Shown here piece after piece: positions 8,115 to 25,155 of a DNA stretch of 64,000 bases (positions within the stretch are counted from its first letter, which is position 1; each line of letters starts with the position of its first letter). A model generated the notes under the pieces. It ran no database searches. It was not told the DNA's origin and was given only the letters and a program-made list of their open reading frames with translations. Source of the stretch: Paenibacillus hemerocallicola (GTDB taxonomy: Bacteria; Bacillota; Bacilli; Paenibacillales; NBRC-103111); the NCBI RefSeq assembly GCF_006265175.1, contig NZ_VDCQ01000030.1, forward strand, positions 21,047 to 85,046, given 5' to 3'. The translations under genes were made by a program, and so were the position numbers.

Positions 8115-8161
8115 CGGAGGCCAGGCCGGCTCCTTTTTCGCAAGGGCCGGACCGATTGGTT

Positions 8162-8419: not shown

Positions 8420-8468
8420 GAAGCGTCCGCTTGCCTGGATCAGATGATCGGCAACGGACGCTTCAGTT
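8420..8468 (+). terminator. Long stem-loop downstream of the UvrA-like gene
   Basis: GAAGCGTCCG at 8420-8429 is exactly complementary to CGGACGCTTC at 8455-8464. Inside, TTGCC pairs with GGCAA and GATC with GATC, giving about 19 base pairs, followed by AGTTTT. It probably ends transcription from the UvrA-like gene before the converging hisF-like gene. The T run is short. Confidence 0.6.
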
Positions 8469-8553
8469 TTCCGGCGGAACGGGCGGTGGGCAGTCGACCT
8501 GATTCGGTGGCTCACCGTCTTTTTCAGACAAACTCAAACAGCTATAATCCTTT

Positions 8554-9327
8554 TTAATATCTTACGTGAATTCCTTGTTCTTTAAGGTATTGTTTTATAT
8601 CATCAATCGTACATTCTTTGTAATGTAACAAGGAAGCCACCAGCGCTGCATCGACATTTGCTTTTTCAAACACTTCGCCTATATCGGAAAGCTTGCCGGC
8701 GCCCCCAGAGGCGATTATAGGTACGTTTACGGACTGGGACAATAAACTTAATAATCCAATATCATAGCCATCCTTGGTTCCATCTTTGTCTATACTGGTG
8801 CATATTATTTCTCCGACTCCCAATTGTTCGGCCATTTGTGCCCATTCGACTACATCAAGTCCCGTGCTTTGATGCGCGGAGTGCGTATAAACTTCATAAC
8901 GTACAAGTTCTTTGTTTTCGTTGTATACCGCTTTGGCATCGAGGCCTAATACAACACACTGCTTGCCGAAAATTTCGGCGGCTTCGGTGATCAGTTCCGG
9001 TCTTTTGACCGCTGCGGAATTAATACCTACCTTATCTGCTCCGCATCTCAACACTTTTTTGAAATCTTCGACAGTTCTTACACCGCCAATGACAGAGAAG
9101 GGAACAAAGACATTTTCGGCTGCACGTCGTATCCATTCATATTTTACGTTATCGTTTGTCAGCGAGGCAGTAGTATCCAGATATATGATTTCGTCCGCCC
9201 CGGCTTCCGCGTATTGTTGGCCTAATTCGGCCGGATCGCCAACAATAGTAGGGTTTCTAAATTTAACATACTTTACTGCGCTATCGTTCAGGACATCTAT
9301 TGCCGGAATAATCCTTTTTTTTAACAA
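8554..9327 (-). CDS. hisF: HisF2-type cyclase subunit (amidotransferase partner of HisH)
   Basis: A 257-residue (beta/alpha)8-barrel of the HisF family. In histidine synthesis HisF uses ammonia from HisH to convert PRFAR into imidazole glycerol phosphate and AICAR. The two catalytic aspartates are kept (AIDV near the N terminus, GLDAK mid-protein), as is TSIDKDGTKDGYD. However, the canonical 'KDGRVVKG' loop reads 'NDSAVKYVKFRNP' followed by VGDP, and the GGGI phosphate loop reads IGGV. This matches the HisF2/AglZ/WbpH-like proteins that act in acetamidino sugar modification rather than histidine synthesis. The start is a TTG at 9327 with AGGAGG seven bases upstream; the longer frame from 9369 adds residues absent from the family. 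No other his genes are nearby except hisH at 17320, so a specialised role is likely. Confidence 0.85.
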   Translation of the reverse strand: MLKKRIIPAIDVLNDSAVKYVKFRNPTIVGDPAELGQQYAEAGADEIIYLDTTASLTNDNVKYEWIRRAAENVFVPFSVIGGVRTVEDFKKVLRCGADKVGINSAAVKRPELITEAAEIFGKQCVVLGLDAKAVYNENKELVRYEVYTHSAHQSTGLDVVEWAQMAEQLGVGEIICTSIDKDGTKDGYDIGLLSLLSQSVNVPIIASGGAGKLSDIGEVFEKANVDAALVASLLHYKECTIDDIKQYLKEQGIHVRY

Positions 9328-9438
9328 GAAATTTCCTCCTACGATTTTGATCTTGAGGCCGCCCATCATTCGTGGTGCTGTTGGGTCGGTACTCGGCTCG
9401 TTCGGTTTTAATGATTAACCCAATAAAAGGTGAACCGA

Positions 9439-9687
9439 CTAAAGCAGCACAAGTTTTCTTTTAACATGAGCAATGATATGACCGGGAGTGGCGAAATTTT
9501 CGAACAACAGCTCTTCCTCATCAAATGCGATGTTAAACACTTCTTCCAATTCGACAATGAGTTTAACAATTTTAAAGGAATCGAAGCCCCATGCGTACAA
9601 ATCTTCCGAATAAGATAAAGGAGCGAATTTCTCGCCGAGAGTGTTCTTGAGTTTTTTTTTGACTAGCTGTTCAATGTTTAAATTCAC
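9439..9687 (-). CDS. Acyl carrier protein 1
   Basis: An 82-residue stand-alone carrier protein. The serine of WGFDSFK is the expected 4'-phosphopantetheine site (usual motif GxDSL). The stretch 'LIVELEEVFNIAFDEEELLFENF' is closely paralleled in the second carrier protein at 21521 (LIVDLEEMYHIVFDEDELLTENF when aligned), so the two are paralogues. The start is GTG with GGGGAGGTG upstream, and the gene overlaps the end of the araC-like gene by 17 bases, which implies coupled translation. It probably tethers an acyl or aminoacyl intermediate. No phosphopantetheinyl transferase was found in the window. Confidence 0.88.
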   Translation of the reverse strand: MNLNIEQLVKKKLKNTLGEKFAPLSYSEDLYAWGFDSFKIVKLIVELEEVFNIAFDEEELLFENFATPGHIIAHVKRKLVLL

Positions 9688-10543
9688 AATTCACCTCCCC
9701 GAACTCGCCGATGCTATTTCCATATCCGTTTATTCCTTTATTTCTGCGGTACTGGGTCGGAGTTATTCCAAAATAACGTTTAAACAAATCTCCGAATTGC
9801 GATTGGGAAATATAACCAAGTTGTTCTGCGATTACACCGATAGTAAAGTCGGTGGAAACAAGCCATTCTTGTGCCTTTGCCATTTTTAAGTTTTGTAAAT
9901 ACTTGATCGGGGAAACCCGAAATACTTTTGAGTAGGAGTTGCATAAATAGACTGGATTACTTCGAACCAAATCCGCCAAATACTGCAAAGTAAGGGGGCG
10001 CATATAATTATTGCGGATATAGCGGTTCACCGTAATAAGTCTGGAGTCGATTTTACCTATTGGTCGTTTGGCCGGTGTCAAAACATTCTCTTTCTCTACA
10101 TGCAAGGATTGAAGCAACGAATAAAGTTGCCTTTCTGTTTCCGGCAATACTTCCGTAGAAATTCTATTTTCCGCGAATAAAGGGGCGACTATGGATGTGG
10201 CTTGGATGGCAAACGAGTTCTGGCTGTGCACGATTAAAGATCGCTCCCATTCCTCTGAAGCGGCTCCCCATTGAAAAATAATTCCTCGTACCGTAACAGG
10301 ATGGGCGGTTGTGTTGACGAGACGGAATTTCCTGCCTATCAGTACATCTCCATGTTGTAGTCGCTGACCGGTTTTATGCCCCTGTAAATGCAGGGATCCA
10401 AATATTTCGATATAAGCGTAGTACTCTGCTTGGACATTCCAATGAGTCGAGCTCCCCGAGGTAATGATTTCGTTTGTATGGATCGAACAAATTTTTACAA
10501 ACACGGTATCACCATATTCGCGATGTAATGAGGACGGTTTCAC
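9671..10543 (-). CDS. AraC-family transcriptional regulator of the cluster
   Basis: A 290-residue one-component regulator. The N-terminal ~150 residues look like a cupin-type sensor domain (HGDVLIGRKFRLVN), and the C-terminal ~100 residues are a double helix-turn-helix AraC domain (LQYLADLVRSNPVYLCNSYSK, then IGVIAEQLGYISQSQFGDLFKRYFGITP in two pieces). It starts with GTG at 10543, only a few bases after a predicted transcription start, so its leader is very short. It heads the minus arm (regulator, carrier protein, hisF) and diverges from the main operon, so it is the natural candidate for pathway control. The effector is unknown. Confidence 0.88.
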   Translation of the reverse strand: MKPSSLHREYGDTVFVKICSIHTNEIITSGSSTHWNVQAEYYAYIEIFGSLHLQGHKTGQRLQHGDVLIGRKFRLVNTTAHPVTVRGIIFQWGAASEEWERSLIVHSQNSFAIQATSIVAPLFAENRISTEVLPETERQLYSLLQSLHVEKENVLTPAKRPIGKIDSRLITVNRYIRNNYMRPLTLQYLADLVRSNPVYLCNSYSKVFRVSPIKYLQNLKMAKAQEWLVSTDFTIGVIAEQLGYISQSQFGDLFKRYFGITPTQYRRNKGINGYGNSIGEFGEVNCEFKH

Positions 10544-10558
10544 ACAATTTTAATATAA

Positions 10559-10586
10559 ATTTTACCATGAAAAAAAGGAAATTCAA
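10559..10586 (-). promoter_or_regulatory. Predicted promoter of the araC-ACP-hisF arm
   Basis: On the minus strand a -35 TTGAAT (10586-10581) and -10 TAAAAT (10564-10559) are separated by 16 bases. The predicted transcript start is about eight bases before the GTG start of the regulator. Confidence 0.5.
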
Positions 10587-10594
10587 GTTAGTTT

Positions 10595-10646
10595 TTGATG
10601 TATATCCTATATAATACATATAATCGGTATTTACAGATATTATCTG
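10595..10646 (+). promoter_or_regulatory. Predicted promoter and operator-like palindrome of the main operon
   Basis: A -35 like TTGATG (10595-10600) and a -10 TATAAT (10619-10624) are 18 bases apart. Immediately downstream the 13-base inverted repeat CAGATATTATCTG (10634-10646) lies where a bound regulator would control initiation. About 100 AT-rich leader bases follow before the first gene. Confidence 0.5.
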
Positions 10647-10741
10647 AATTTACATAAATGATAGTGTTGCAATGAGGTCTGTGATATAGTACCTTCCATG
10701 AAAATATTAATTTTTTTACTTTATATTGTAAAAAAAGGGGG

Positions 10742-11956
10742 ATGAGTACTATACCAGTTACAAGTGACGAGCTTTCTTATAGTTTGAATGGCAAAATAAA
10801 TGATTTACAGAAAGCATTTAGCGATAAAGCCGGTTATTATGATCAATCAGGTTTATTTCCACATGAAAACATAGATTTGGTAACCAATAACGCTCTACAT
10901 ACAGTCACTATAGACTCGGATTACGGCGGAATGGAATTAGGTTTTGAAGAGACTAGTGAATTGCTGGTGCGTCTCGCTTCAGGTTGTCCTTCTACGGCCT
11001 TATGTTTGGCAATGCATTACTACACCATTGCCGGATTAAACAAAGTGCTCTCCCCGCAACAAAAAAGCAAAATTTATTCGGACATACGTAATAACGGACA
11101 TTACTTCACATCCTTTAATCAACCGAACGTGACGATTGTTCAAGCGAACCAGGATTTCACCCAGAGCACGGGAATAGCAATAAAAAAAGTGGATGAAGGG
11201 TATTTAGTGAACGGAGTCAAGAGATGTTCTTCGGGCATTGACAGATTTTCGTACATTCCGATTTATGGGAATCAAGTGGGCATTGATAAAAGCAGGTTTG
11301 GTATTTCGGCATTGTTTTTACGAAGGGACGACCCCGGTGTAACCATAACCAGCTCTTGGGATAACGCATCTTTAAGAGCATCTGCAGGTCATGATGTCTT
11401 ACTTAACGATGTTTTTGTGAGTAAGGACAGATTAATTGGCCATGAGGGATTTGGAGTCGAGAATACTTCCAATTTGGTGTTTTGGTCAAGGATGGCTATA
11501 TCTTCGGTTTATTTGGGTATTGCCAAAGCTTCCATGGATTACATAACTACTATTATTAAACATAAAAAAGATTATGTTTCGAAGAAAACGCTCGCTTTTT
11601 TACCTAACATACAATATGCCTTTTCCGAACTGAAAATCAAATATGATACAGCCCATAGTCAGTTGAAAATGTTTGTCAAACAGGCGGATTATGAAACTTT
11701 TAATGGTAAATACACGGACGATTTGTTTCAACGGGCGCTTGTAACCAAATTTTTTGTTGGTCGGACCGCCAATGAGATCGTATGGCAAGCTATGCAGATT
11801 GAAGGCATGAGATCCATGTCAAGAGGAAGTGTTTTGGAGAGACTGTATAGGGATGTTAGAGCCGCTACTTTTCATCAACCGAATGACGATCTGATGAAGG
11901 AAATATTGGCGAAAAAGGCACTTGGACTCATCGCTCCCAAAAATAGATGGGTATAG
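10742..11956 (+). CDS. Acyl-CoA-dehydrogenase-family flavoenzyme
   Basis: A 404-residue protein of the acyl-CoA dehydrogenase fold: helical N-terminal domain (GGMELGFEETSELL), beta middle domain (VKRCSSGIDRFSYIP) and a C-terminal four-helix bundle ending in LYRDVRAATFHQPNDD, as in this family and in the related flavin monooxygenases (DszC/SfnC-like). In natural product clusters such enzymes desaturate or oxidise carrier-protein-bound substrates; I infer that here too. It is the first gene of the plus operon. The ATG is directly preceded by GGGGG with almost no spacer, which is unusual and makes the exact start uncertain. Confidence 0.85.
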   Translation: MSTIPVTSDELSYSLNGKINDLQKAFSDKAGYYDQSGLFPHENIDLVTNNALHTVTIDSDYGGMELGFEETSELLVRLASGCPSTALCLAMHYYTIAGLNKVLSPQQKSKIYSDIRNNGHYFTSFNQPNVTIVQANQDFTQSTGIAIKKVDEGYLVNGVKRCSSGIDRFSYIPIYGNQVGIDKSRFGISALFLRRDDPGVTITSSWDNASLRASAGHDVLLNDVFVSKDRLIGHEGFGVENTSNLVFWSRMAISSVYLGIAKASMDYITTIIKHKKDYVSKKTLAFLPNIQYAFSELKIKYDTAHSQLKMFVKQADYETFNGKYTDDLFQRALVTKFFVGRTANEIVWQAMQIEGMRSMSRGSVLERLYRDVRAATFHQPNDDLMKEILAKKALGLIAPKNRWV

Positions 11957-12005
11957 GGAGAAAGTAGACTATTAATTGGAAAATTTATGTTCGGGAGAGA
12001 TTTAT

Positions 12006-13196
12006 ATGAAACTTGAGCTTGATTTTTTTTCTCACTTGCTAGTGGATACGTATCCATTTCAATTTAGGATTTCCAATGAAGACACTTCCGTTCATCTGAA
12101 GAGCGATTCTCTCGAAGTTCTGGCGCATACGAGGGCTTATTTGCACTATGAACTTACGAATACGCCTAATTTATACAATTGGGAATTTATAGCGCTCACA
12201 TCGTGTTCAATGGATTTTGAGGTGCTATTTCAAGGAGCCGAACAAAAAAATCTGGAGTATGGGGATCCGGGCTCCACAATACATATTTCTTCTTGGCTCG
12301 GGATTCGGAACCATCGATCAAAAAGCTTTATTTTTGTTAACCATAAGGAACGTAAAGTCATTCTTATAAATTCTGATGAACGTTCACTGTTTGTGGATAC
12401 CTATAAAGCAGTTCGGCAAACGATAACTAGTGAATTGATGGGACGGTGTATTCCGTTACATTGTTCAAGCTTTTCTTATGGCGGTCAAGGTATTATTTTT
12501 GTGGGCGATAAAGGAAGCGGGAAAACGACTCTGCTGGTGGCCTCATTGTTACAAAAAGGAAGATTGGCTAGCTATCTAGGAAATGACCGGATTTTGGCAC
12601 GTGCGGATGAAACGGGAGTCAATCTTTATGTGTGGCCTACTGTACTTGGAATTGGGCCGGGTGCGATTCATAATATGCCAAAATTCAAAGAGCAAATGTT
12701 GCCGGATCTGCATGATCGCGCGGGTGGAACGGCTCGATGGCTGTTCGATCAAGAGTTGATAACGGAGCCTGAAGGCCCCTTTAAAGAAGTAGAGAATCTG
12801 GAACGGAGTAAACAATGGAACTGGCCCCAAAAACTTTGGCTAACGCCGATGGAGGTAGCTGCTTCCTGCAATACCAACCTGGGACATCGGAGCGGGCTAA
12901 ATCTGATTATTTATCCCAGTCTTAATCCGGATGCCAAGCATGTATCCGTAGAAGAGATCAATGGGGAACAGTCGGCCGAAATGATAAATTCAAATATTTT
13001 GAAAGAACTTACATTTTATCCGAATTGGATGAAACTTCCGACTCCTCACACAGATGTATGGAATAATTCCGTTGCTGAATTGCAGGAAAAGGTTAAAAAA
13101 ATTCCTGCTTATAAAATTACCGGCGGGCCTGATACTGAAGCTGTAGTAAATGCCGTTTTTTCATTACTCTCTCGTAGGGGAAAGGGGAGAGTCTAA
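12006..13196 (+). CDS. HPr-kinase-like P-loop protein
   Basis: A 396-residue protein with an HprK-like ATP-binding domain: P-loop GDKGSGKTT at about 167-175 preceded by LHCSSFSYGGQG, with a less recognisable N-terminal half. Proteins of this kind (unlike true HprK of the PTS) occur in lasso peptide and other RiPP-like clusters; in the paeninodin group they phosphorylate the peptide. Here no lasso cyclase or peptide is visible, so the target is open. The ATG at 12006 with a GGGAGAG site is preferred to the TTG at 11976. The stop overlaps the next start by one base (TAATG). Confidence 0.75.
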   Translation: MKLELDFFSHLLVDTYPFQFRISNEDTSVHLKSDSLEVLAHTRAYLHYELTNTPNLYNWEFIALTSCSMDFEVLFQGAEQKNLEYGDPGSTIHISSWLGIRNHRSKSFIFVNHKERKVILINSDERSLFVDTYKAVRQTITSELMGRCIPLHCSSFSYGGQGIIFVGDKGSGKTTLLVASLLQKGRLASYLGNDRILARADETGVNLYVWPTVLGIGPGAIHNMPKFKEQMLPDLHDRAGGTARWLFDQELITEPEGPFKEVENLERSKQWNWPQKLWLTPMEVAASCNTNLGHRSGLNLIIYPSLNPDAKHVSVEEINGEQSAEMINSNILKELTFYPNWMKLPTPHTDVWNNSVAELQEKVKKIPAYKITGGPDTEAVVNAVFSLLSRRGKGRV

Positions 13197-14470
13197 TGTT
13201 AGCTTTTTTCGGAGGAAAACCCGAAGTTACAGTTACTCAACCGCACAGTAATTGGCCAATTGTTCTACCCGAAGTAATTCGTGCTGTCCAGAAATATTTG
13301 GAGGATGGAAGCCCGCTATCCATTAGTGATAAGACTGGCGTGGTTAATGATCTGGAAACAAGTTTTGAAGAATATTACGGTCTCCCGTATGCGCTTCTGA
13401 CCAACTCGGGAAGCAACGCTTTATTTTCGGCATTTATGGCAATAGGCATCGGTCCTGGTGACGAGGTCATCGCCCCGACTTACGCATTCCATGCTTGCAT
13501 AACTTCTGTAATTAATCGAGGAGCGGTTCCAGTATTATGCGACACCGAGCCCGACTCTATGAACATCGATGCGGCTTCTATCGAGCAATTAATTACTCCG
13601 CGAACCCGTGCAATTGTCGTTGTGCATAATTGGGGTCATCCGGTCGATCTGGAACGGATTAGACTCGTTGCGGACAGACACGGTTTGTATTTGATTGAAG
13701 ACTGCTCTCATGCGCACGGATCGGAGTATAACCATCAGAAGGTCGGAACGTTCGGAGACATTAGCTGCTTTAGCCTTCAAGCCAATAAACTTGTATGCGC
13801 CGGGGAAGGCGGGGTTTTGCTTACTCCTCACAGGGAATTGTACGAACGTGCATGTTTATTGGGGCACTACAGAGGACGCAGCCACACGACTATCAAAAGT
13901 AAGTTCTACAAGCAATTTGCCGAGACAGGCTATGGTCTGAAAAATCGAATCCATCCGTTGGCTGCTGTTATAGCCCGAGAATATTTTTTAGCGCTTGACG
14001 ATGAAGTTGGCAGACGGGTGGAGATGTTTCATTCATTGAATGAAATACTAAGAACTTTGCCCGGAATAAATCCGCCACTGATTAAAGAATACGTGACAAG
14101 ACATTCCTACTATGGATACAAGCCGGAGTATAATCCGGATGAATTAGAGGGCTTGAGCATGGAGTTGTTTATAGATGCGTTGAAGTCCGAAGGCGTTGAA
14201 ATACATAAGCCGACTTTCAAAATGATACATCAACTTGAACTATATAGAACAAGAAACAATAGGCTTTATCCCAATACTCCCGAAAACTGGAGGGTGTACG
14301 GGGATGGAGATTTCCCGAATTCCGAAAAACTGATTACAAAATTGCTAACTTTATCTATTCCAACGGGACCAGAATCAAAATCAATCATGGAACAGTACAT
14401 GAACGCATTTTATAAAGTAGTCGAAAATTATCGTAAGCTACTAGATTACTCGACAGTTGCATTGAAATAG
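13196..14470 (+). CDS. DegT/DnrJ/EryC1-family PLP aminotransferase
   Basis: A 424-residue aspartate-aminotransferase-fold enzyme that typically transfers an amino group from glutamine or glutamate to a keto sugar, keto-cyclitol or related ketone. The expected parts are seen: TNSGSNAL cofactor-phosphate region (69-76), IEDCSHAHG (Asp169, pyridine contact) and CFSLQANK with the PLP-binding Lys198 followed by GEGG. The family includes cyclitol aminotransferases of aminoglycoside pathways (BtrS, StsC) and AHBA synthase; which activity applies is not clear. Translation is coupled to the preceding gene. Confidence 0.9.
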   Translation: MLAFFGGKPEVTVTQPHSNWPIVLPEVIRAVQKYLEDGSPLSISDKTGVVNDLETSFEEYYGLPYALLTNSGSNALFSAFMAIGIGPGDEVIAPTYAFHACITSVINRGAVPVLCDTEPDSMNIDAASIEQLITPRTRAIVVVHNWGHPVDLERIRLVADRHGLYLIEDCSHAHGSEYNHQKVGTFGDISCFSLQANKLVCAGEGGVLLTPHRELYERACLLGHYRGRSHTTIKSKFYKQFAETGYGLKNRIHPLAAVIAREYFLALDDEVGRRVEMFHSLNEILRTLPGINPPLIKEYVTRHSYYGYKPEYNPDELEGLSMELFIDALKSEGVEIHKPTFKMIHQLELYRTRNNRLYPNTPENWRVYGDGDFPNSEKLITKLLTLSIPTGPESKSIMEQYMNAFYKVVENYRKLLDYSTVALK

Positions 14471-14499
14471 AGGAGTAGCTTTCCTAGGAGTGTTCTAGC

Positions 14500-15453
14500 T
14501 TGTCTATCGAATTGATAAATGATGTGTTTCCGGACAGTGCGATTACTTGTACCGAGGTTTTAATAGATCAACCCAATAAGCTAGTAATAAGATACGGTCT
14601 ATTGCAAGGAACAACAAAAAGAAATGTAGTATATAAAAAAGGTTCATATAAAGAGATGCAAATTTCGGAATATCTCGATAAAATAAAAGTTCCAGGAATT
14701 CCATTTTTGTATTATGTTGATGATAAACAAATGATTATGGAAAGTACTGGCGATCCAATCAAAAAGAATTCGGTAATTCCCGTCTCGGTGCTGAATACGA
14801 TTTGTTATGTACATAACGCGACTATTGGTAAAATAGAGTCGATTCCTTTTGTTGGAATACACACCGAGAAAACGTACTATGAAGAGCTGGAGGATCTCCA
14901 ACTCATATTAACAACGGTCCTTAACGGTAAACACGCCGAAATTTTATTCGATAACGAAATGAAAGCGATTATTATGGAAAGTATGTATGAAATATCAAAA
15001 TATTTTTATGCATTACAAACTACAAATTGCTTCAGTCTCATTCATTTTGATTTATGGAGTGGTAATATGCTGATCAATCAGGAGGGGCACGGATATAGTG
15101 TTATAGATTGGGGAAAAGGTGCCTACGGGAATCCCGTGTTTGATCTAATCACCTTTTCGGACTGGAGGAGGTCGGCAAATTTTTACTATAAACATAGAAT
15201 AAAGAATCCAGCTTACCAGCTAAATTATGACAAATTTCAATTACAGTGCTACATAGCCAGAACGGTTAAAATTTTAAGTTATTTAGACTGGGATCTGAAT
15301 GTGAATAATTTGGTAACGAAAGATTTGAATAATAAAGTCATTAAAAAAGTCGTAACGATGAGAAAGGCTCATATAAAAAGGAGGCTTGACGAGATCCGGA
15401 CTAATTTATTCATATTAAAGAACTTGAAGCCGACAGAGAAGGCCATTTTATGA
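14500..15453 (+). CDS. Aminoglycoside/choline-phosphotransferase-like kinase
   Basis: A 317-residue APH-fold kinase. The catalytic loop reads IHFDLWSGN (Asp184, Asn189) and the metal-binding motif VIDWGKGAYGNPVFDL (Asp203). Such enzymes phosphorylate hydroxyls of aminoglycosides, choline or sugars. It could confer self-resistance or protect a biosynthetic intermediate; the directly coupled phosphatase downstream fits a phosphorylate-then-release scheme. The start is TTG at 14500 with AGGAG nine bases upstream. The C-terminal 70 residues are rich in Lys/Arg. Its stop overlaps the next start (ATGA). Confidence 0.85.
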   Translation: MSIELINDVFPDSAITCTEVLIDQPNKLVIRYGLLQGTTKRNVVYKKGSYKEMQISEYLDKIKVPGIPFLYYVDDKQMIMESTGDPIKKNSVIPVSVLNTICYVHNATIGKIESIPFVGIHTEKTYYEELEDLQLILTTVLNGKHAEILFDNEMKAIIMESMYEISKYFYALQTTNCFSLIHFDLWSGNMLINQEGHGYSVIDWGKGAYGNPVFDLITFSDWRRSANFYYKHRIKNPAYQLNYDKFQLQCYIARTVKILSYLDWDLNVNNLVTKDLNNKVIKKVVTMRKAHIKRRLDEIRTNLFILKNLKPTEKAIL

Positions 15454-16121
15454 CCAAGGGCATCATATTCGATTTTGATGGTGTAATCCTCGATACGGAA
15501 ACGATCGATTATAAAGTTATGTGTCAAATATATGAAGAATATGGGGCCGTATTGCCGCTTGACATGTGGGCGAGGAGGGTCGGCGGACATAAAAATAATT
15601 TCGATCCCTATGAATATCTTATAAGCTGTACGCAAAACAATCTAAATAAAAATGATCTTAAGAAGTATAAAAAGGCCAAGTATGAGCAATGTATGGCAAA
15701 TGAAAGGCTGCTGCCCGGAGTGCTATCATGTCTACAATCCGCGAAAAGGATGAACATCCCGGTAAGTATCGCCTCCAGTTCACCACGAAAAAGAATAGTA
15801 GAACTGCTAGGCAAATTTAATATCATTGACTATTTCGCCTATATTGTGAGTTCAGAAGATGTAGTTAACGTCAAGCCCCATCCGGACTTATACTTGAAAG
15901 CCGTGTCGTTGATGAATCTGGAACCATTCGATGTTATAGCCATTGAAGATTCACCTGCAGGAGCAAGGGCAGCGAAGGACGCCGACATATATTGTATTAT
16001 TGTTCCAAATGAAATGACGAGAAGATTTACTTTTCAAAATGTGGACTTGCAATTAAATTCTTTGCAGGAAATGGAGTTGCCCGATCTGTTAAACTATGTA
16101 AATATAGTGAAAGGAAGATAA
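15450..16121 (+). CDS. HAD-family phosphatase/phosphoglucomutase-like
   Basis: A 223-residue HAD hydrolase of the beta-phosphoglucomutase/CbbY type. Motif I is FDFDGVILD (Asp8 nucleophile, Asp10), motif II lies in SIASSSPRKR, motif III lysine in NVKPHPDLY, and motif IV is IEDSPAGARAA. It probably dephosphorylates a small sugar-like phosphate. Because it starts inside the stop codon of the APH-like kinase gene, the two products are likely made in step and may act on the same compound. Confidence 0.88.
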   Translation: MTKGIIFDFDGVILDTETIDYKVMCQIYEEYGAVLPLDMWARRVGGHKNNFDPYEYLISCTQNNLNKNDLKKYKKAKYEQCMANERLLPGVLSCLQSAKRMNIPVSIASSSPRKRIVELLGKFNIIDYFAYIVSSEDVVNVKPHPDLYLKAVSLMNLEPFDVIAIEDSPAGARAAKDADIYCIIVPNEMTRRFTFQNVDLQLNSLQEMELPDLLNYVNIVKGR

Positions 16122-16124
16122 AAG

Positions 16125-17288
16125 ATGGAAATCGAGTTGGCTTTAGAAGAGAGACTGATTCTCAAACTAATAAAGCTAGACATGACAGACGAAGAAGTAG
16201 AAGAATGCCGCCGCTTAATGAGTGAAGGAGCAGTTGATTGGGGGAGAATGATTCATCTCGCGGTTATGCATAAAGTTACCATGATTATGTATAGAAATGT
16301 TATAGAGAAAAATATATTCAATGTTGAAGGCAAATGGAAAAATATTCTCAACACCTACCTTGCAGGGAATCGGATACGTAATGAAATGATTTATCGTCAT
16401 ATTTATCCCGTATTAAGCGAATTGTCTGAAATAGACGTAACATGCATCCTATTAAAAGGCGCTTTATTAAATCATACCTTATACGATGATTTTGGATTGC
16501 GACATAGTAACGATGTCGATTTACTTGTAAGTGAAGATGCTTTGACGGTTACCGAGAAAATTTTTGAAAAGCACGGATTTATTCAAGGCCAGATCAACTG
16601 GGAGACTAGAAAGCTGGAACCGGCCACTAGAAAACAAAAAGCTTTTCAGCGAATGTCTACCCATGAGCTAATGCCTTTTATATTGGAAAAAAACGAGAGT
16701 TTTTGCAAATTTGTCGAGGTCGACGTTCATTTCGATATTTTTAGCCGAGCCAAAAGAATGAGAGCAAATTTCCCTATCGCGGAACTGTTTAAATCAGCAA
16801 AAAAAATAACTATTAACGGGAATATTGAATGCTACTCTCTAAAGCCGGAATACAATCTAATGCAATTAGCATCGCACCTCTATCAGGATGCAACAATGAT
16901 ACAAAGTATTTCAAGGGGGAAAGACATTGAGCTAATAAAATTCGTGGATTTAAATGAATTCATACGTCGGAATATTCATGAAATAAATTGGGGAGTTTTT
17001 GCCGAACAATTGGTGGAATTTCGAATCAACCCCATCGTTTATTACGCTATTTATTATACGGAGCAAATATTTGGCGAACTAGTTCCCAGATCTTTTATGA
17101 ACAGTATTTGCCCGCCCGATCAGGAATACCTTAATATGTTTGCATTCGAGGAAGAGCATCAGCACGTATGGCAACAGCCATTTTTTGAGCGTATGTTTAA
17201 TTTCGATAGAAAAGAGGCGTTGAAAGATATTAAAAAAGATGAGTCTTTAAAATACATCTCTATTCTGAAGGAGTTAAAAGCAAAGTAA
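16125..17288 (+). CDS. Nucleotidyltransferase-family protein (NTP_transf_5-like)
   Basis: A 387-residue protein with a pol-beta-type nucleotidyltransferase core: KGALL at 111-115 and the metal motif HSNDVDLLV (Asp130, Asp132). The family (putative nucleotidyltransferase, Pfam NTP_transf_5-like) is found next to HprK-like kinases in lasso peptide clusters of Bacillus and Paenibacillus. The reaction in this cluster is unknown; transfer of a nucleotidyl group or, by analogy with some lasso clusters, participation in sugar attachment are possibilities. It is three bases after the HAD gene and shares the low GC of this half of the operon. Confidence 0.75.
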   Translation: MEIELALEERLILKLIKLDMTDEEVEECRRLMSEGAVDWGRMIHLAVMHKVTMIMYRNVIEKNIFNVEGKWKNILNTYLAGNRIRNEMIYRHIYPVLSELSEIDVTCILLKGALLNHTLYDDFGLRHSNDVDLLVSEDALTVTEKIFEKHGFIQGQINWETRKLEPATRKQKAFQRMSTHELMPFILEKNESFCKFVEVDVHFDIFSRAKRMRANFPIAELFKSAKKITINGNIECYSLKPEYNLMQLASHLYQDATMIQSISRGKDIELIKFVDLNEFIRRNIHEINWGVFAEQLVEFRINPIVYYAIYYTEQIFGELVPRSFMNSICPPDQEYLNMFAFEEEHQHVWQQPFFERMFNFDRKEALKDIKKDESLKYISILKELKAK

Positions 17289-17319
17289 TATAGCAGAATT
17301 TTATTGGAGGAATTTTTGT

Positions 17320-17916
17320 ATGATAGGAATTATAGATTATGGTGCGGGTAATCTCTTCAGCGTGCAAAAATCAATCGAAAAACTAGGAAAACAAGCAAAA
17401 ATAGTTTCATATCCCGAAGATTTTACGCAAATCGATAAAGTAATCCTTCCGGGTGTAGGGAATGCAAAAAGAACTATGGATATTTTGGACCATCGGGGGC
17501 TAAGCAGAGCTATAAACGAAATCGTAAAAGAAATACCCTTTCTGGGAATTTGTTTGGGGATGCAGTTGCTTCTAGACTATAGCAAAGAAAATGATGCCAC
17601 TTGTTTAGGGATTGTGAGTGGCGGGGTAGTACCTTTTGACCAAAGCCTCAGAGTTCCACACATGGGTTGGAATGAAGTAAAGCAGGAAAAAAAACATAGA
17701 ATCTTTGATGGCATTCCGGATAAGTCCAATTTTTATTTTGTTCATTCTTATCGTGTGTTTACAAACGATTCGGAACATACAATTGGAACAACCATTTACG
17801 ATGGCTCGTTTTCGAGCGTAATCGCCAAAGAGGACCATATTATCGGGGTACAATTCCATCCCGAGAAAAGCGGAGAAACAGGCCTTTTACTGCTTGAAAA
17901 TTTTTGTCGTTTGTAA
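17320..17916 (+). CDS. hisH: HisH-type glutamine amidotransferase
   Basis: A 198-residue class I glutaminase. The catalytic triad is visible as Cys78 (GICLGMQ), His180 and Glu182 (QFHPEKS). HisH releases ammonia from glutamine and passes it through the HisF barrel. Its partner should be the HisF2-type protein at 8554-9327, which lies 8 kb away and on the opposite strand, an odd split for two subunits of one complex. With no other histidine genes, the pair probably supplies ammonia for amidine, amide or imidazole formation on the cluster's product. RBS is TTGGAGGAA. Confidence 0.9.
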   Translation: MIGIIDYGAGNLFSVQKSIEKLGKQAKIVSYPEDFTQIDKVILPGVGNAKRTMDILDHRGLSRAINEIVKEIPFLGICLGMQLLLDYSKENDATCLGIVSGGVVPFDQSLRVPHMGWNEVKQEKKHRIFDGIPDKSNFYFVHSYRVFTNDSEHTIGTTIYDGSFSSVIAKEDHIIGVQFHPEKSGETGLLLLENFCRL

Positions 17917-17940
17917 ATTGCATAAAACGAAGGAGAGCCA

Positions 17941-19740
17941 ATGTCATCGAGTAAACGTCAAACGGCGGCGCTAAACGGGGCGGGTTCCGGGATGCTGAGC
18001 GTCTATGGGTGGGTTATTGCTTATTTGGGCCGATATAAGTGGCATGTTGCTCTATTTATTGGATGCGGGGTAGTAGCTTCCGTTATCGAGCTGTCGATTC
18101 CGAAATTCATTCAATTTTTCATCGATCAAGTGTTGCCTGGCAGAAACATCCCATTGTTTGCGCAGCTATTGTCGGTGCTATGCCTCTGTTTTATTATGCT
18201 GTTCATAGTAAAAGCTTTTCGCAATGTATTGCAAAGAATATTTCAGGAAAAGACGGCTCGGGATCTTCAGCTCGGCCTGCTTGCCCAGTTGCGGCGCTTG
18301 GGCTTTTCCTATTACGAGCAACATCCGACGGGAGAAACATTGGCGCTGTTCAACACGGAAGTCGCGGCCGTGCAGCAAATCTATAGGAGATATTTTCCTA
18401 CGATCATTCAGGGGAGTTTGACCTTTGGCATTGCCTTCGTGTTTGCCGCTCAAATCCATTTTATTCTAACTATTTCAATTGTGCCCTTTTTCCTGTCGTA
18501 CTATATGATAGGACCGTATTTCGAGAAGAAGGCGGCATTGATCGGCAGAGAAGCACAGCAAAAACGAACGGAAGCCAACAAAAAATTGTATGACAGCTTT
18601 TCCGCGATTCTCGAGCTTCGGGCTTTCGGTGCCCAGCAATGGGATTTGCGCCGTCTCCTCGCCAAGTTTACGAGTTTTCATGAGGTGCTGCTGGCGCAAT
18701 ATTTGAACGCCTATCTTAGAGGGACTGTGCGAAGGGTGACGACCTACTTCGGCGCGCTTTTTCTGTTTGTGTACGGGGTGCACTTGGTTCGGAACGGAGA
18801 AATGAGCGTAGGGGAATTTGTGGCGTTTGCCTCTTATTATTTTCTGATTATGGGAGATTTGACCCGTATTGTAACGATGACTACCGAGCAACGGTTGCTG
18901 CTGCATCAAGCGGAAAAGCTGTATCGGTTCATGCACGAGGAGCCCGAGGCGGCGGAGCCGGCACGGCCTGTCGTACTTCCCGCCATTCGGGGGGAAATCC
19001 GCTTTCGCGATGTGTATTTCGGCTATCCGCAGTTTCCGGCTGTCATTAGGGGGTTCGAGCTCCATATTCGTTCGGGGGAAAAAGTGGCCTTAGTCGGGAC
19101 AAGCGGCAATGGGAAATCGACTTTGCTGAAGCTGGTGGGGCGGTTTTACGACCCGCAGCAGGGGGAGATTTTGCTGGACGGGGCTCCCTTGCCCGAGCTT
19201 TCGTTCTCCCAGCTTCGCGGGGCTATCGGATTTGTGTTTCAAGAAACGTATCTCTACGGTACTTCGGTGATGGAAAATATCCGCTTCGGCCGCCCGGAGG
19301 CCAGTGACGAGCAGGTGATGGCGGCGGCGCAAGCGGCTTATGCCCATGACTTTATCGTGCAGATGCCGCAGGGCTACGATACGTTGGTTGGCGAGCGGGG
19401 TATCAAGCTTTCCGGCGGACAAAAGCAGCGCATCGCGATTGCCCGCATGTTTGTGAAAAATCCGTCCATCGTGCTGCTGGATGAGGCAACGTCGGCGCTG
19501 GACAATACGAGCGAGATTGAGGTGCAGAAAGCGCTGGATGCTTTGCTGGAAGGGCGGACGACGATTGCCGTTGCCCATCGTTTGTCGACGGTGCGCGATT
19601 ATGATCGAATCGTTGTAATGGACGGGGGGCGCAATGTGGAAGAAGGCACTTACCGGCAATTGCTGGAAAGGAAAGGCATGTTTTACCGACTGGCCGAGGG
19701 CGAAACGGCTGATGCAAACATGGCGGGTGAAGCTGGATGA
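17941..19740 (+). CDS. ABC exporter half-transporter A
   Basis: A 599-residue fused membrane-ATPase protein: about six transmembrane helices (residues ~25-320) then a nucleotide-binding domain with Walker A GTSGNGKST, signature LSGGQKQRIAIA, Walker B IVLLDEATSALD and the H-loop AVAHRLS. It overlaps the next ABC gene (ATGA), so the two probably form a heterodimeric exporter for the cluster product. Its third-position GC is visibly higher than that of the genes before and after it in the same operon, which suggests a separate origin. Confidence 0.9.
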   Translation: MSSSKRQTAALNGAGSGMLSVYGWVIAYLGRYKWHVALFIGCGVVASVIELSIPKFIQFFIDQVLPGRNIPLFAQLLSVLCLCFIMLFIVKAFRNVLQRIFQEKTARDLQLGLLAQLRRLGFSYYEQHPTGETLALFNTEVAAVQQIYRRYFPTIIQGSLTFGIAFVFAAQIHFILTISIVPFFLSYYMIGPYFEKKAALIGREAQQKRTEANKKLYDSFSAILELRAFGAQQWDLRRLLAKFTSFHEVLLAQYLNAYLRGTVRRVTTYFGALFLFVYGVHLVRNGEMSVGEFVAFASYYFLIMGDLTRIVTMTTEQRLLLHQAEKLYRFMHEEPEAAEPARPVVLPAIRGEIRFRDVYFGYPQFPAVIRGFELHIRSGEKVALVGTSGNGKSTLLKLVGRFYDPQQGEILLDGAPLPELSFSQLRGAIGFVFQETYLYGTSVMENIRFGRPEASDEQVMAAAQAAYAHDFIVQMPQGYDTLVGERGIKLSGGQKQRIAIARMFVKNPSIVLLDEATSALDNTSEIEVQKALDALLEGRTTIAVAHRLSTVRDYDRIVVMDGGRNVEEGTYRQLLERKGMFYRLAEGETADANMAGEAG

Positions 19741-21515: not shown

Positions 21516-21520
21516 TTCAA

Positions 21521-21772
21521 ATGCAAACGACTTCGACAGTAACTATGGTTTCGGACATAACGGCGAAAGTAAATGAGATTCTAGAAACGGATCACAACAT
21601 AGCTTGGGAGGAAGAATTAACGTCACTCGGTTTGGATTCTATCAAGTCTGTTAACTTAATAGTAGATCTTGAAGAAATGTACCATATAGTATTCGATGAA
21701 GATGAGCTGCTCACCGAAAATTTTTCGACGATAAGTAAAATAGTAGCCCGTGTTCAAGGGAAGCTGGGGTAA
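21521..21772 (+). CDS. Acyl carrier protein 2
   Basis: An 83-residue carrier protein with LGLDSIK carrying the phosphopantetheine serine. It is a close paralogue of the carrier protein on the minus arm (shared pattern LIVxLEE, FDExELLxENF). The ATG at 21521 lies ten bases after GGGGG; the ATG at 21497 inside the ABC gene is less likely. It is followed within four bases by the ATP-grasp gene, the arrangement expected if the ligase loads this carrier, as BtrJ loads BtrI in butirosin biosynthesis. Confidence 0.9.
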   Translation: MQTTSTVTMVSDITAKVNEILETDHNIAWEEELTSLGLDSIKSVNLIVDLEEMYHIVFDEDELLTENFSTISKIVARVQGKLG

Positions 21773-21776
21773 TTTC

Positions 21777-23042
21777 ATGATCACTAACCCATTGTCGCAT
21801 TGGAACTGGCATGACAAAAAAATATATTGGTATTGCAATTTAAATCATGAACAAACTTGGAATGAATCGAAGTTTTTTCCTTCGGTGACAGATACATCTC
21901 AGCTTCATTTGATTTTGCAGCAGGAACAGCAGATGATTTATTTGACTAGAGCCAATGACACTGTACTGTTCAGGCATCAACCCGATCTTGACTTTTGGTT
22001 GTATTTGCAAAAGCAAGGCATTCAGCTTCCAAATATCCAGATCATATCTGATTTTCATTCTTGGTACCGAAGCGAGCAAATGGATCGTAGCGCTATGATC
22101 GTGCCTTACATGGTGACAGAGGAATTTCTTCCATGTCTCCAAGATGATGGCTGTTCCGTTTACGGAAGCAATCCCGCGCTGGTGAAATTTTTGAATAACA
22201 AGCTTGCTGTGCGCAAGTTTGCGCAGGAGAACGGGTTTACCACCACAAAGGGATACTTTTGTGGTGGTTTGGAACAATTAATAGACGCTTATCGATCGTT
22301 AACACTCCAAGGTTTCGAGAAGACGGTCATAAAAATCCCTTACGGATCTTCTGGAAAAGGATTGAAAATAATCCATAATAAAGAAGAATTCAATCGGTTT
22401 GTTGCTTTCATAAAACGAAGGATCCATACGTTTACGGAACTTGTAATTGAAGGCTGGTATACGATCGAACGTTCTTTGAATGCTCAATTATTAATTGAAG
22501 ATGGGAACGTTCACTTGCTCGCAGTAACGGAGCAACATATCGACGAGAACGCAGTTTACATGGGTTCCGATTTCACACCGCAGTACAATCGTTTGTTAGT
22601 CCAAAAATATCGAAATGAAATGCTGAGGCTGGGACACCTGCTGAAAGATATGGGGGTACAAGGAGTTCTGGGTGTGGACTCTATTGTGGATCAAGCAGGG
22701 GTTCTTTATCCCATCATTGAAATTAATGCAAGATTCACTCAAGTCACTTATTTACTCCCCCTTATAGAAAGACTGAACAAGGAACATCCCATTTTAATGA
22801 GCAGATTTCTCAGGTTTTGCCTAATTGAAGAATTCAGTTTTAATGAAATTTACGAGTGTCTCAATTTACATCTGGAGCCCGATTCTAGTAATTATTTTTT
22901 GGTGTATACATTTGCTACAAATAAAGAAGGAGGGAAAACCAATTATCGAATGTTTGTTTTATTCTATGGCTCCGATAGAAGGAAAGTACAAAGTATGATG
23001 AATGCTTTTCTGGCATTCAATCCTATTTCATTTAAAAATTAA
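21777..23042 (+). CDS. ATP-grasp ligase (BtrJ-like role proposed)
   Basis: A 421-residue ATP-grasp protein. The ATP-binding lysine segment TVIKIPYGSSGKGL, the IEGWYTIERS strand and the metal-binding end PIIEINARFTQVTYL are recognisable. ATP-grasp ligases activate a carboxylate as acyl phosphate and join it to an amine or thiol. Lying between a carrier protein and a BtrH-like acyltransferase, it is a good candidate to load an amino acid on the carrier or to add a protecting residue, as BtrJ does. An amide-ligase role using HisH/HisF ammonia is an alternative. The start is the ATG at 21777, with GCTGGGG upstream. Confidence 0.8.
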   Translation: MITNPLSHWNWHDKKIYWYCNLNHEQTWNESKFFPSVTDTSQLHLILQQEQQMIYLTRANDTVLFRHQPDLDFWLYLQKQGIQLPNIQIISDFHSWYRSEQMDRSAMIVPYMVTEEFLPCLQDDGCSVYGSNPALVKFLNNKLAVRKFAQENGFTTTKGYFCGGLEQLIDAYRSLTLQGFEKTVIKIPYGSSGKGLKIIHNKEEFNRFVAFIKRRIHTFTELVIEGWYTIERSLNAQLLIEDGNVHLLAVTEQHIDENAVYMGSDFTPQYNRLLVQKYRNEMLRLGHLLKDMGVQGVLGVDSIVDQAGVLYPIIEINARFTQVTYLLPLIERLNKEHPILMSRFLRFCLIEEFSFNEIYECLNLHLEPDSSNYFLVYTFATNKEGGKTNYRMFVLFYGSDRRKVQSMMNAFLAFNPISFKN

Positions 23043-23082
23043 TTTATTTCGCGATTTGTTGTAGCAAGGAGGGGAAACGATA

Positions 23083-25155
23083 GTGTATGACCAGAAAATT
23101 TTCAGAATTGTTGAGTCGACAGGTCTGTTTTGTCGAAAAAGCCAAACTTTAAATTATTTCAATCGTAGAGGATTAGACGTAGAGCCTTTATTTTTCGCCG
23201 CGTACGACAACACCAGAAAAGTATACGAAGAGGCCGTAGTAAAGAAAAAATCCAGATATAACATTTCTAATAAGCTATGCAATAAGGAAGACTTTGCAAC
23301 GCTAGGTATTTTACAGTATGATACGAAATTTGTATCGTTCGGAGATGCTTACTCTACTGTGGTCAGCAATATGGAAAGAGAAAGATCCGTATTTATTTTT
23401 ATAACAAATGCATATATTCCCCATCGTGGCGGAAGGAGCACGCACTCCATCATACTGGAAGGATTCGATAGGGAACAAGGCTTGTTTGCTGTAACCGATC
23501 CCCCTGCAAAGAACCCTTATTATTATGATATGGATATTTTGTGCGCCGCGTACGATAGTTTGCCGGATTTCAAAAAATATATAACTGTTTTTGACTATAG
23601 TTCTTTCAAATTGGATCAAGAAAGTTTACGTAATTTGCATTCGAAGTTTCATCATTTATTTTGCGGTATGGAATTGGATCTCCTGCTGTTTGACGCTTTT
23701 GTCGGCTTTTTGGAAGGGAACTTGGAAACATCCGACCAGCTGAACGAGTGGATTGAAGCTTTTTCCTATCTTCATGGAACGAGGTCGTTGTTCCAGATCT
23801 ATTGGGAGAAATACCATTCATCCGTAGCCGCCCATAATCTTTTGGAAGAGTATATCATGCAAATGGCCATTCTTAGAAATATGTTATATCTGGTGAAAGC
23901 GAAATGGCCCCAACCCGATAAGATAGGAAGCCTTATCGAGCGTTGCAAGAAGATCAGACAGATGGATCTTATGCTGTATCAGACGATACGTAGATATTTG
24001 ACCGATTCTGATAGCGGCTTGTACAATTCAAGCGTACGACCTCTGTATATAGATCCGCCGCATGCTTTTAAATGTACCGCTATGACAGATACGAGTGCGT
24101 TCTTATGTTGGGAAGATGCGAATGCCGAAATGCGGGCGGACGGATACGAATTGTATCAAGACGAGAGCCTAATTGCTGTGACCAATCGCAATAGTCATAT
24201 TGTCGGTAACTTAATGCCCGACACAAAGTATAATTTTAATTTAGTATCTAAAGACGCATTCGGCAACTGTTCAAAGCCAGTCGCCTTATCCGTCGCCACT
24301 AGAGAGGAAGACGTATCCGAAAGTCGTAATTTTGCTCTTTACAAGCCTGTAGAGACATCATCTGAAAGAGAGCAAATATTATTGGGGAAATACAACATTG
24401 TCGATGGGGATCAGACTACTCCTTGGGTCAGTGATGAACAGGAGTTCCAGTTCGTTAAGATAGATATGGGAGAATTAAAGAAAGTACGTCATGTCCGCAT
24501 ACATTGGGGAAGCTTGTATGCCAGGAAATACAAAATGATGTGTTCTGAAAATGGGGACCAGTGGAATGCGGTTTATTTATCGGAGCACGGGAAAGCCGGG
24601 ATTGAAGATATACATAATATCGAATTCTCGGGCCGATACTTAAAAATTGAAATGCTTGAATCCGCGTATGAAAACAAATATACGATTTGGGAAATTGAAA
24701 TATTTGGTCGGCGAAAACCGCCTTTGCACTATTATAAAGCCGAAGAGTTGGACACGCATCTGTCGGAAGGCACACGAAGGAATAGAGTTCAACAAAGAGA
24801 TCAAGCCGGAGCCCAGTGGAGAGCCGTAGATGTCATTAGATTTAGTGCCGTGAACGATTGTATGACTTACAAACTGAATATAGAGAAGTGTGGAAACTAC
24901 TTGGTGCGGATCGGTACAATTAGAGCCATTAACCAATGTAGATTTCAGCTCTATGTCAACGGGAAAAAACAAGGGGGCGAGCAGGATATGGCTCTTGCCC
25001 AAACTTATTTTGAAGTTCTGGACCTTGGAAGCCTGGTTATTGAGGAGGCCGGAATAATCGATTTTACAATCGAGGTTTCAGGAAAGAGTGAAAGCAGCAA
25101 GGATTATGTGCTTATTGTTGATCATATTGTTTTGATCCCGGACCAGACCGGGTAG
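23083..25155 (+). CDS. BtrH-like acyltransferase fused to FN3, discoidin-like and CBM6-like domains
   Basis: A 690-residue protein with an unusual build. Residues 1 to about 320 resemble the BtrH_N family (butirosin acyltransferase; papain-like/C39-like fold): Cys17 in GLFCRKS, His121 in THSIILEGFD and Asp139 in FAVTDPP form a plausible catalytic triad. Residues ~324-406 are a fibronectin type III domain, ~415-543 an F5/8 type C (discoidin) domain (NIVDGDQTTPWVS, KYTIWEIEIFG) and ~548-690 a CBM6-like beta-sandwich (YYKAEELD, VDHIVLIP). These last three are normally found outside the cell, yet there is no signal peptide. I infer a cytosolic acyltransferase that moves an acyl group from a carrier protein to a glycan-like or aminocyclitol acceptor held by the sugar-binding domains. 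It starts with GTG after AAGGAGGGG and ends the operon. Confidence 0.75.
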   Translation: MYDQKIFRIVESTGLFCRKSQTLNYFNRRGLDVEPLFFAAYDNTRKVYEEAVVKKKSRYNISNKLCNKEDFATLGILQYDTKFVSFGDAYSTVVSNMERERSVFIFITNAYIPHRGGRSTHSIILEGFDREQGLFAVTDPPAKNPYYYDMDILCAAYDSLPDFKKYITVFDYSSFKLDQESLRNLHSKFHHLFCGMELDLLLFDAFVGFLEGNLETSDQLNEWIEAFSYLHGTRSLFQIYWEKYHSSVAAHNLLEEYIMQMAILRNMLYLVKAKWPQPDKIGSLIERCKKIRQMDLMLYQTIRRYLTDSDSGLYNSSVRPLYIDPPHAFKCTAMTDTSAFLCWEDANAEMRADGYELYQDESLIAVTNRNSHIVGNLMPDTKYNFNLVSKDAFGNCSKPVALSVATREEDVSESRNFALYKPVETSSEREQILLGKYNIVDGDQTTPWVSDEQEFQFVKIDMGELKKVRHVRIHWGSLYARKYKMMCSENGDQWNAVYLSEHGKAGIEDIHNIEFSGRYLKIEMLESAYENKYTIWEIEIFGRRKPPLHYYKAEELDTHLSEGTRRNRVQQRDQAGAQWRAVDVIRFSAVNDCMTYKLNIEKCGNYLVRIGTIRAINQCRFQLYVNGKKQGGEQDMALAQTYFEVLDLGSLVIEEAGIIDFTIEVSGKSESSKDYVLIVDHIVLIPDQTG

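What the first reader, a model, noticed from the sequence alone, without database searches (positions are those of the whole stretch)
8554..25155. Unassigned biosynthetic cluster combining butirosin-type acyl transfer with HisH/HisF amidotransferase and kinase/phosphatase genes
Seen: two carrier proteins, an ATP-grasp ligase, a BtrH-like protein, an acyl-CoA-dehydrogenase-like enzyme, DegT aminotransferase, HisF/HisH, APH-like kinase, HAD phosphatase, HprK-like kinase, nucleotidyltransferase, two ABC halves and one AraC regulator, all in two divergent units. Known: BtrI/BtrJ/BtrH build and transfer an aminoacyl side chain in butirosin; HisF2/HisH serve sugar amidine formation. Inference: a natural product with a carrier-built acyl group placed on an amino sugar, cyclitol or glycan. 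No NRPS, PKS or RiPP core enzyme is present, so it matches no pathway that I know as a whole.
Basis: partly seen in the sequence, partly recalled or inferred. Interest (0 to 1): 0.9.

Follow-up and report, generated by a model that had tools for sequence, protein, structure and literature searches.

The report
Carrier-protein acylation cluster with recruited HisHF
A 16.6-kb low-GC gene cluster in a Paenibacillus relative encodes carrier proteins, an ATP-grasp ligase and a BtrH/CtaG-like enzyme that are predicted to load an amino-acyl group and attach it to an amine, alongside an extra copy of the histidine-pathway enzyme HisH/HisF that likely helps make that amine part, so it probably makes an undescribed natural product without the usual peptide-synthetase machinery.

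The parts
8554..9369 (-). HisF, IGP-synthase cyclase subunit (extra copy in the genome; the true start is probably a little inside this frame)
   Evidence: TIGR00735 315.6 bits; alignment; own-genome paralogues on C143 and C4
9439..9687 (-). Carrier protein 1, Ser36 in the DSF motif
   Evidence: PF00550 36.4 bits; motif
9671..10543 (-). AraC-type regulator
   Evidence: PF12833 63.8 bits; AraC-carrier-ATP-grasp order in L025, L026, L030, L031, L041
10742..11956 (+). Acyl-CoA-dehydrogenase-fold flavoenzyme; Gln at the place of the usual catalytic Glu
   Evidence: PF08028/PF00441; alignment to 8i4p and 5ol2; homologues in 6 of 29 ATP-grasp loci
11976..13196 (+). HprK-like P-loop kinase (weak assignment)
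   Evidence: TIGR04355 31 bits, partial; homologues in 2 of 29 loci, L034 and L041
13196..14470 (+). DegT/StrS-type PLP aminotransferase
   Evidence: PF01041 246 bits; scyllo-inosose aminotransferases incl. 2c7t about 170 bits; G604/P. algicola homologue 44.5% over 411 aa
14500..15453 (+). APH-like small-molecule kinase
   Evidence: PF01636 32.6 bits, cut-off 23.2
15450..16121 (+). HAD-family phosphatase
   Evidence: PF13419 114 bits
16125..17288 (+). NTP_transf_5 nucleotidyltransferase-like protein
   Evidence: PF14907 143 bits; 43% in L029; relative in L111
17320..17916 (+). HisH, glutaminase subunit, GICLGMQ and QFHPEKS motifs kept
   Evidence: TIGR01855 217 bits; alignment
17941..19740 (+). 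ABC exporter half 1
   Evidence: PF00005/PF00664; 54% in L029, 55% in L041
19737..21515 (+). ABC exporter half 2
   Evidence: PF00005/PF00664; 46% in L029, 47% in L041
21497..21772 (+). Carrier protein 2 (BtrI-like), Ser47 in the DSI motif
   Evidence: PF00550 39.5 bits; 50-52% to carriers of the four butirosin-type loci
21750..23042 (+). ATP-grasp ligase, BtrJ family
   Evidence: PF02655 37.6 bits; 100 proteins listed, own included; 37-38% to the BtrJ position in L043, L044, L046, L047
23083..25155 (+). BtrH/CtaG-type amide synthase domain (about 12-310; Cys17, His121, Asp139) fused to fn3 (324-392), CBM32-like (425-537) and CBM6/35-like (about 577-690) domains

Best explanation
The 15-gene cluster at 8554-25155 is a likely horizontally acquired natural-product pathway that would work without NRPS or PKS: the ATP-grasp ligase is predicted to load an amino acid on the carrier proteins, the flavoenzyme would oxidise it there, the BtrH/CtaG-type enzyme is predicted to transfer it by a Cys-His-Asp mechanism to an amine, and the HisH/HisF pair with DegT probably builds that amine part. 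Step by step. (1) Loading of carrier 2, and perhaps carrier 1, by the BtrJ-family ATP-grasp ligase: inferred from homology. No BtrK-like decarboxylase gene lies in the cluster (the rest of the genome was not searched for one), so the acyl group is probably not GABA. (2) The ACAD-fold enzyme modifies the carrier-bound acyl group: inferred; the usual Glu base is Gln, so hydroxylation or another flavin oxidation is as likely as desaturation. (3) HisH releases ammonia from glutamine and HisF, which keeps the IGP-synthase residues, uses PRFAR or a close analogue to give an imidazole-glycerol-phosphate-type unit; DegT aminates it and the HAD phosphatase dephosphorylates it: inferred from lineage and from the separate DegT-HisH-HisF-NTP_transf_5 locus. 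(4) The amide synthase joins acyl and amine; its carbohydrate-binding-type domains would hold a sugar-like or glycan partner: inferred. (5) The APH-like, HprK-like and NTP_transf_5 proteins would phosphorylate and perhaps nucleotidylate or glycosylate the product, the two ABC halves would export it, and AraC would regulate: inferred.
Against: The BtrH_N score is below cut-off, identity to CtaG, AziU3 and CcbD is 9-12%, no residue-level superposition was seen, and the Cys is absent or unaligned in 8 of 27 homologues (read by eye). The rest of the model is poor (residues 357-592 pLDDT < 50). HisH and HisF occur in 0 of 29 ATP-grasp loci and the G604 core has no carrier, so neither cassette needs the other. 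DegT relatives point to cyclitol or sugar ketones, not an imidazole. No HisB-like dehydratase is among the 15 genes, so the imidazole route lacks a step. A third HisF with a broken HisH on contig C4 shows that such pairs also occur outside this cluster. No product or expression is known.
Confidence: 0.55

Rival explanations
1. Sugar amidination: HisH/HisF only feed ammonia to an amidine on an amino sugar, as WbpG/HisH2/HisF2 do (comparison recalled).
For: HisF also matches WbuZ at 250.5 bits; DegT aminotransferases are typical of such sugars.
Against: HisF is above the IGP-synthase cut-off and below the WbuZ and AglZ/HisF2 cut-offs; no WbuX above cut-off in the genome, only a partial 43.9-bit match; the lineage is the only HisF above cut-off in four other genomes.
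Confidence: 0.12
2. HisH/HisF are a spare, insensitive IGP synthase that protects the producer from its own product.
For: A complete extra catalytic pair beside the housekeeping one.
Against: The same pair sits with DegT and NTP_transf_5 in G604 without the acylation cassette; no change at the active-site motifs was seen.
Confidence: 0.13
3. The cluster decorates a surface glycan or other polymer rather than making a small secreted product; the carbohydrate-binding-type domains hold the polymer.
For: fn3, CBM32-like and CBM6/35-like domains on the amide synthase.
Against: Two ABC export halves of the kind shared with other ATP-grasp loci; no glycosyltransferase or polymerase family among the 15 genes.
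Confidence: 0.1
4. HisH/HisF are passengers: genes carried into the island with no role in its product.
For: A decayed pair elsewhere; absent from 29 of 29 ATP-grasp loci.
Against: HisH is inside the operon with 31- and 24-bp gaps and HisF is in the AraC-carrier unit; both are intact; DegT and NTP_transf_5 are also their neighbours in G604.
Confidence: 0.1

Closest known systems
Butirosin side-chain system BtrH/BtrI/BtrJ (with BtrK, BtrO, BtrG)
   Same: ATP-grasp ligase, carrier and BtrH-type transferase are homologous and adjacent in both; the DegT protein is close to scyllo-inosose aminotransferases incl. 2c7t (that 2c7t is BtrR is recalled)
   Different: No BtrK-like decarboxylase, BtrO-, BtrG- or 2-deoxy-scyllo-inosose-synthase-like gene among the 15; ACAD-fold flavoenzyme instead; HisHF; two carriers; transferase fused to carbohydrate-binding-type domains
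Closthioamide pathway (CtaD/CtaE/CtaH/CtaG) and lincosamide condensing enzymes CcbD/LmbD
   Same: ATP-grasp plus two stand-alone carriers plus a transferase of this fold in closthioamide; Cys-His-acid, carrier-dependent amide formation in CcbD
   Different: No thioamidation gene family found among the 15 genes; amide synthase only 9-12% identical and fused to extra domains
Bacillus sp. ZZV12-4809 locus L029
   Same: ACAD, both ABC halves (54, 46%), carrier, ATP-grasp, BtrH-like, NTP_transf_5
   Different: Other genes there are a radical-SAM protein and an NDK-like protein (the latter named by eye); no DegT, APH, HAD, HisH or HisF homologue found in the locus
G604 / P. algicola DegT-HisH-HisF-NTP_transf_5 locus (L111)
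   Same: Homologues of four window genes, HisF 70% and DegT 44.5%
   Different: Has a HisA-like gene, lies between restriction-type genes (named by eye), and no homologue of the other 11 window genes at E<=1e-3 in the 34 kb searched; IS-like remnant inside
Adechlorin/pentostatin clusters with recruited HisG and PriA/HisA homologues
   Same: Histidine-pathway enzymes recruited to a natural product (PMC13055916, passages)
   Different: There HisG and HisA homologues, here HisH and HisF; neither HisH nor HisF occurs in that main text
Lasso-peptide kinase/nucleotidyltransferase pair PadeK/PsmK and PsmN
   Same: A kinase gene beside an annotated nucleotidyltransferase gene (PMC9266682, passages; that PadeK is of HprK type and PsmN of NTP_transf_5 type is recalled)
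   Different: No lasso-peptide family among the 15 genes; the HprK-like match is weak

Membership tests
Carrier-dependent cysteine amide synthase (BtrH/CtaG/CcbD) | Papain-like plus helical fold | tested here: met
Carrier-dependent cysteine amide synthase (BtrH/CtaG/CcbD) | Catalytic Cys-His-Asp/Glu | tested here: met
   C17, H121, D139, same order as the CtaG variants C11A, H128A, D144N named; superposition of the residues not seen; Cys aligned in 19 of 27 rows (by eye)
Carrier-dependent cysteine amide synthase (BtrH/CtaG/CcbD) | Transfer of a carrier-bound acyl group to an amine | not testable with these tools
   needs an assay
Pfam BtrH_N (PF14399) | Score above the gathering cut-off | tested here: not met
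   13 bits, cut-off 29.7, though it spans 2-134 of 134 profile positions
Butirosin pathway | BtrI/BtrJ/BtrH set | tested here: met
Butirosin pathway | BtrK decarboxylase, BtrO, BtrG and 2-deoxy-scyllo-inosose synthase in the cluster | tested here: not met
   no such family among the 15 window genes
IGP synthase HisHF | HisF and HisH equivalog scores over cut-off | tested here: met
   315.6 against 294.55 and 217.3 against 105.4 bits
IGP synthase HisHF | Conserved Asp/Lys/Asp of HisF and Cys/His/Glu of HisH (residue roles recalled) | tested here: met
   alignment with the housekeeping pair; D25, K33, D144 invariant in A3
IGP synthase HisHF | PRFAR cyclisation | not testable with these tools
   needs an assay
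WbpG/HisH2/HisF2 sugar amidination | WbuZ or HisF2-type HisF over cut-off | tested here: not met
   WbuZ 250.5 against 299.7; AglZ/HisF2 210.9 against 310
WbpG/HisH2/HisF2 sugar amidination | WbuX/WbpG partner in the genome | tested here: not met
   best 43.9 against 203.2 bits, partial
Acyl-CoA dehydrogenase (true dehydrogenase) | Catalytic Glu in the YEGT region (role recalled) | tested here: not met
   Gln aligned there
HprK-type kinase | Score over a curated cut-off | tested here: not met
   TIGR04355 31 against 200 bits; no Pfam match at 0.01
HprK-type kinase | HprK fold | tested here: inconclusive
   model pLDDT 30 from a two-row alignment
NTP_transf_5 | Pfam cut-off | tested here: met
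   143.4 against 31.2 bits

The most novel reading that the evidence does not exclude
A new class of NRPS-free natural product in which imidazole-glycerol-phosphate synthase has been recruited out of histidine biosynthesis to build an imidazole amine, which a carbohydrate-binding, carrier-dependent cysteine amide synthase then caps with an oxidised amino-acyl group.
Probability: 0.3. Interest if true: 0.85.

Novelty: new variant of a known kind. Interest (0 to 1): 0.62.

Why it matters
It ties an orphan cluster to carrier-templated, NRPS-free amide-forming pathways (butirosin, closthioamide) and shows that in Bacillales this module is mixed with very different core-building genes. If HisH/HisF act in the product pathway, a central, intensively studied enzyme of histidine biosynthesis has been recruited into specialised metabolism. 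Two bounded paper searches (20 of 85 papers listed; 25 of 42 listed) showed no title or abstract start reporting this; papers not listed and subscription journals were not seen. The separate G604 locus and the IGP-synthase lineage make the question directly testable.

Tried and rejected
Tried without use: Pfam on the HprK-like protein and its structure model (pLDDT 30); PDB sequence search for it (weak hits to unrelated chains) and for NTP_transf_5 (none). The protein search with the BtrH-like protein found only itself; its length filter shuts out the 300-350 aa relatives, so it speaks only for proteins of about 380-1207 aa that share exact words. BtrH_N search of the own genome: no match at E<=0.001. 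ATP-grasp in plasmids: one Streptomyces place at 25%. DegT in phages: none at 1e-40; in plasmids three places at 1e-60, two of three read, both beside a Gfo/Idh gene. HisF subfamily in viral contigs: seven loci at 43% or less, not followed. HprK-like in 398 Bacilli at 1e-10: 2 of 398, own genome included. HisF type in the genus of G604: 1 of 100, G604 itself. Fold search in viral proteins: six matches at E<=0.001 with high rmsd (14-56), not used. Papers: searches were read as listings; passages only were read of PMC9266682, PMC10318531, PMC12141560, PMC6772006, PMC13055916, PMC12945683 and PMC2922099.

Considered and rejected: the window pair as the housekeeping IGP synthase (C143 carries hisH and hisF inside the his operon); the cluster as an NRPS/PKS/RiPP remnant (no such family among the 15 genes); lack of HisA in the genome (a TIGR02129-type HisA is on C99, 374 bits, cut-off 229).

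Rows dropped before counts: of 26 BtrH-like frames found in 20 loci, 23 plus the window went into A2; left out were L022 5761-7371, L025 12278-13108 and L031 7272-7973. A1 used the window and 29 of the 100 listed ATP-grasp proteins. A3 used the window and 9 of 37 listed HisF proteins. The HisF alignment holds four of the five sequences meant (the G255 copy was not picked up by the script). A 341-aa frame of L024 (6189-7214) looks BtrH-like by eye but was not reached by the profile and is not counted.
Full report
What is there. The window lies in a 9.65-Mb genome of 167 contigs. Fifteen intact frames run from 8554 to 25155. One unit reads leftwards (AraC, carrier 1, HisF); the other reads rightwards (ACAD-fold enzyme, HprK-like, DegT, APH-like, HAD, NTP_transf_5, HisH, two ABC halves, carrier 2, ATP-grasp, BtrH-like fusion). 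Gaps within units are -23 to +69 bp; the divergent gap is 198 bp. GC3 is 0.35-0.44 in 13 of the 15 genes and 0.60-0.66 in the two ABC genes; the two nearest large frames on each side have 0.70-0.74. Four of 32 other window frames of 150 aa or more outside the island also have GC3 below 0.45, so low GC alone does not mark the cluster.

The loading module. The ATP-grasp protein has 100 listed relatives, own copy included, in a 5.8-billion-protein set, mostly Bacillales where named (the list may be capped), and 29 loci in the genome collection. A carrier lies in the fetched stretch in 27 of 29 loci (in L036 inside a 423-aa frame) and the ACAD-fold enzyme in 6 of 29. Four loci (L043, L044, L046, L047) share the gene families and order of a butirosin-type cluster, which I read by eye from the sequences of L047. 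There the ATP-grasp is 37-38%, the carrier 50-52% and the BtrH-like protein 24-26% identical to the window's. Decarboxylases of the BtrK position (family F4) occur in 12 of 29 loci and have no counterpart in the window; two of the 12 were scanned. The ACAD-fold enzyme has Gln where dehydrogenases have Glu, so its reaction is left open. Predicted operons that combine carriers, BtrH-family transacylases and acyl-CoA dehydrogenases were described before in another setting (PMC2922099, passages).

HisH and HisF. The genome holds three pairs: the housekeeping one in the his operon (C143), the window's, and one on C4 with a broken HisH. The window's HisF is 44-49% identical to the HisF of the 103 other family genomes, 47% to its own housekeeping copy and 63% to C4, but 66-70% to HisF named from Psychrobacillus, Pueribacillus, Lederbergia, P. 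lautus and P. algicola. Among 398 sampled Bacilli, four other genomes carry this type at E<=1e-90, all of one unnamed family, f13. In 4 of 4, hisH and hisF sit beside glutamate-synthase genes, named by motif, and this is the only HisF above cut-off; in the two his operons read, hisH and hisF are missing. So the lineage is very likely a genuine IGP synthase. WbuX, needed for the known sugar-amidine route (recalled), has only a partial sub-threshold match.

Two cassettes. Its locus holds a HisA-like gene (PF00977 53.6 bits), DegT (44.5% over 411 aa), HisH (55%), HisF (70%) and an NTP_transf_5 protein (25%; PF14907 105.5 bits), between genes that look restriction-related by eye, and no homologue of the other 11 window genes at E<=1e-3 in 34 kb. 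The Bacillus locus L029 in turn has the ACAD, both ABC halves, carrier, ATP-grasp, BtrH-like and NTP_transf_5 genes, but a radical-SAM protein and an NDK-like protein in place of the core. The window thus combines parts seen apart in those two loci. This is the main support for HisHF acting with DegT in core building rather than as self-resistance.

Mechanism and limits. The proposed order of loading, oxidation, amide formation, phosphorylation and export is inference from families. DegT's nearest solved relatives are 8gyh (substrate not shown) and inosose aminotransferases including 2c7t (about 170 bits), which favours a cyclitol or sugar ketone; an imidazole-type substrate is the bolder reading. 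Recruitment of HisG and HisA homologues into nucleoside-antibiotic clusters is a precedent (PMC13055916, passages), while a 2025 review calls HisHF mostly an enzyme of primary metabolism (PMC12141560, passages). The kinase-nucleotidyltransferase pair recalls lasso-peptide tailoring, where PsmN is reported to be needed for hexoses on a phosphoserine (PMC9266682, passages), but the kinase assignment here is weak. The product is unknown.

Noticed in passing
L111 (G604:C1:728000-747900), 7498-19423: HisA-like, DegT, HisH, HisF and NTP_transf_5 genes sit between hsdM/hsdS-like frames and an AAA/PrrC-like frame (named by eye), with an IS-like remnant inside: a metabolic set in what looks like a restriction island.
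   Followed up: partly
L102, L103, L104, L105: In four genomes of one Bacilli family hisH-hisF lie beside glutamate-synthase genes; in the two his operons read they are missing there.
   Followed up: yes
L064 5709-7130 (G000:C4): A third HisF with a HisH interrupted by a stop, alone, 63% to the window's HisF.
   Followed up: partly
L029 3561-4964: A radical-SAM protein whose best NCBIfam match is a sub-threshold viperin model (58.8 against 180 bits) beside an NDK-like gene, in the locus most like the window's acylation cassette.
   Followed up: no
L029, L034, L040, L042: A 184-203 aa protein (F26; the L040 copy has no Pfam match) next to the BtrH-like gene in four loci; perhaps a stand-alone counterpart of the window's carbohydrate-binding-type domains.
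   Followed up: partly
L040 and L042 (Bacillus sp. 28A-2, B. safensis): ATP-grasp, decarboxylase, ACAD and BtrH-like genes beside an inositol-phosphate-synthase-like gene (L040 copy: TIGR03450 294.7 against 638 bits): a possible inositol-based acceptor; no carrier found in the fetched stretch.
   Followed up: no
window 5484-8114: A UvrA-like protein (876 aa, GC3 0.73, named by eye) directly upstream of the island; by composition not part of it.
   Followed up: no
L126 7796-8551 (G000:C99): The genome's HisA is of the eukaryote-type family (TIGR02129 374 against 229 bits) and lies outside the his operon.
   Followed up: yes
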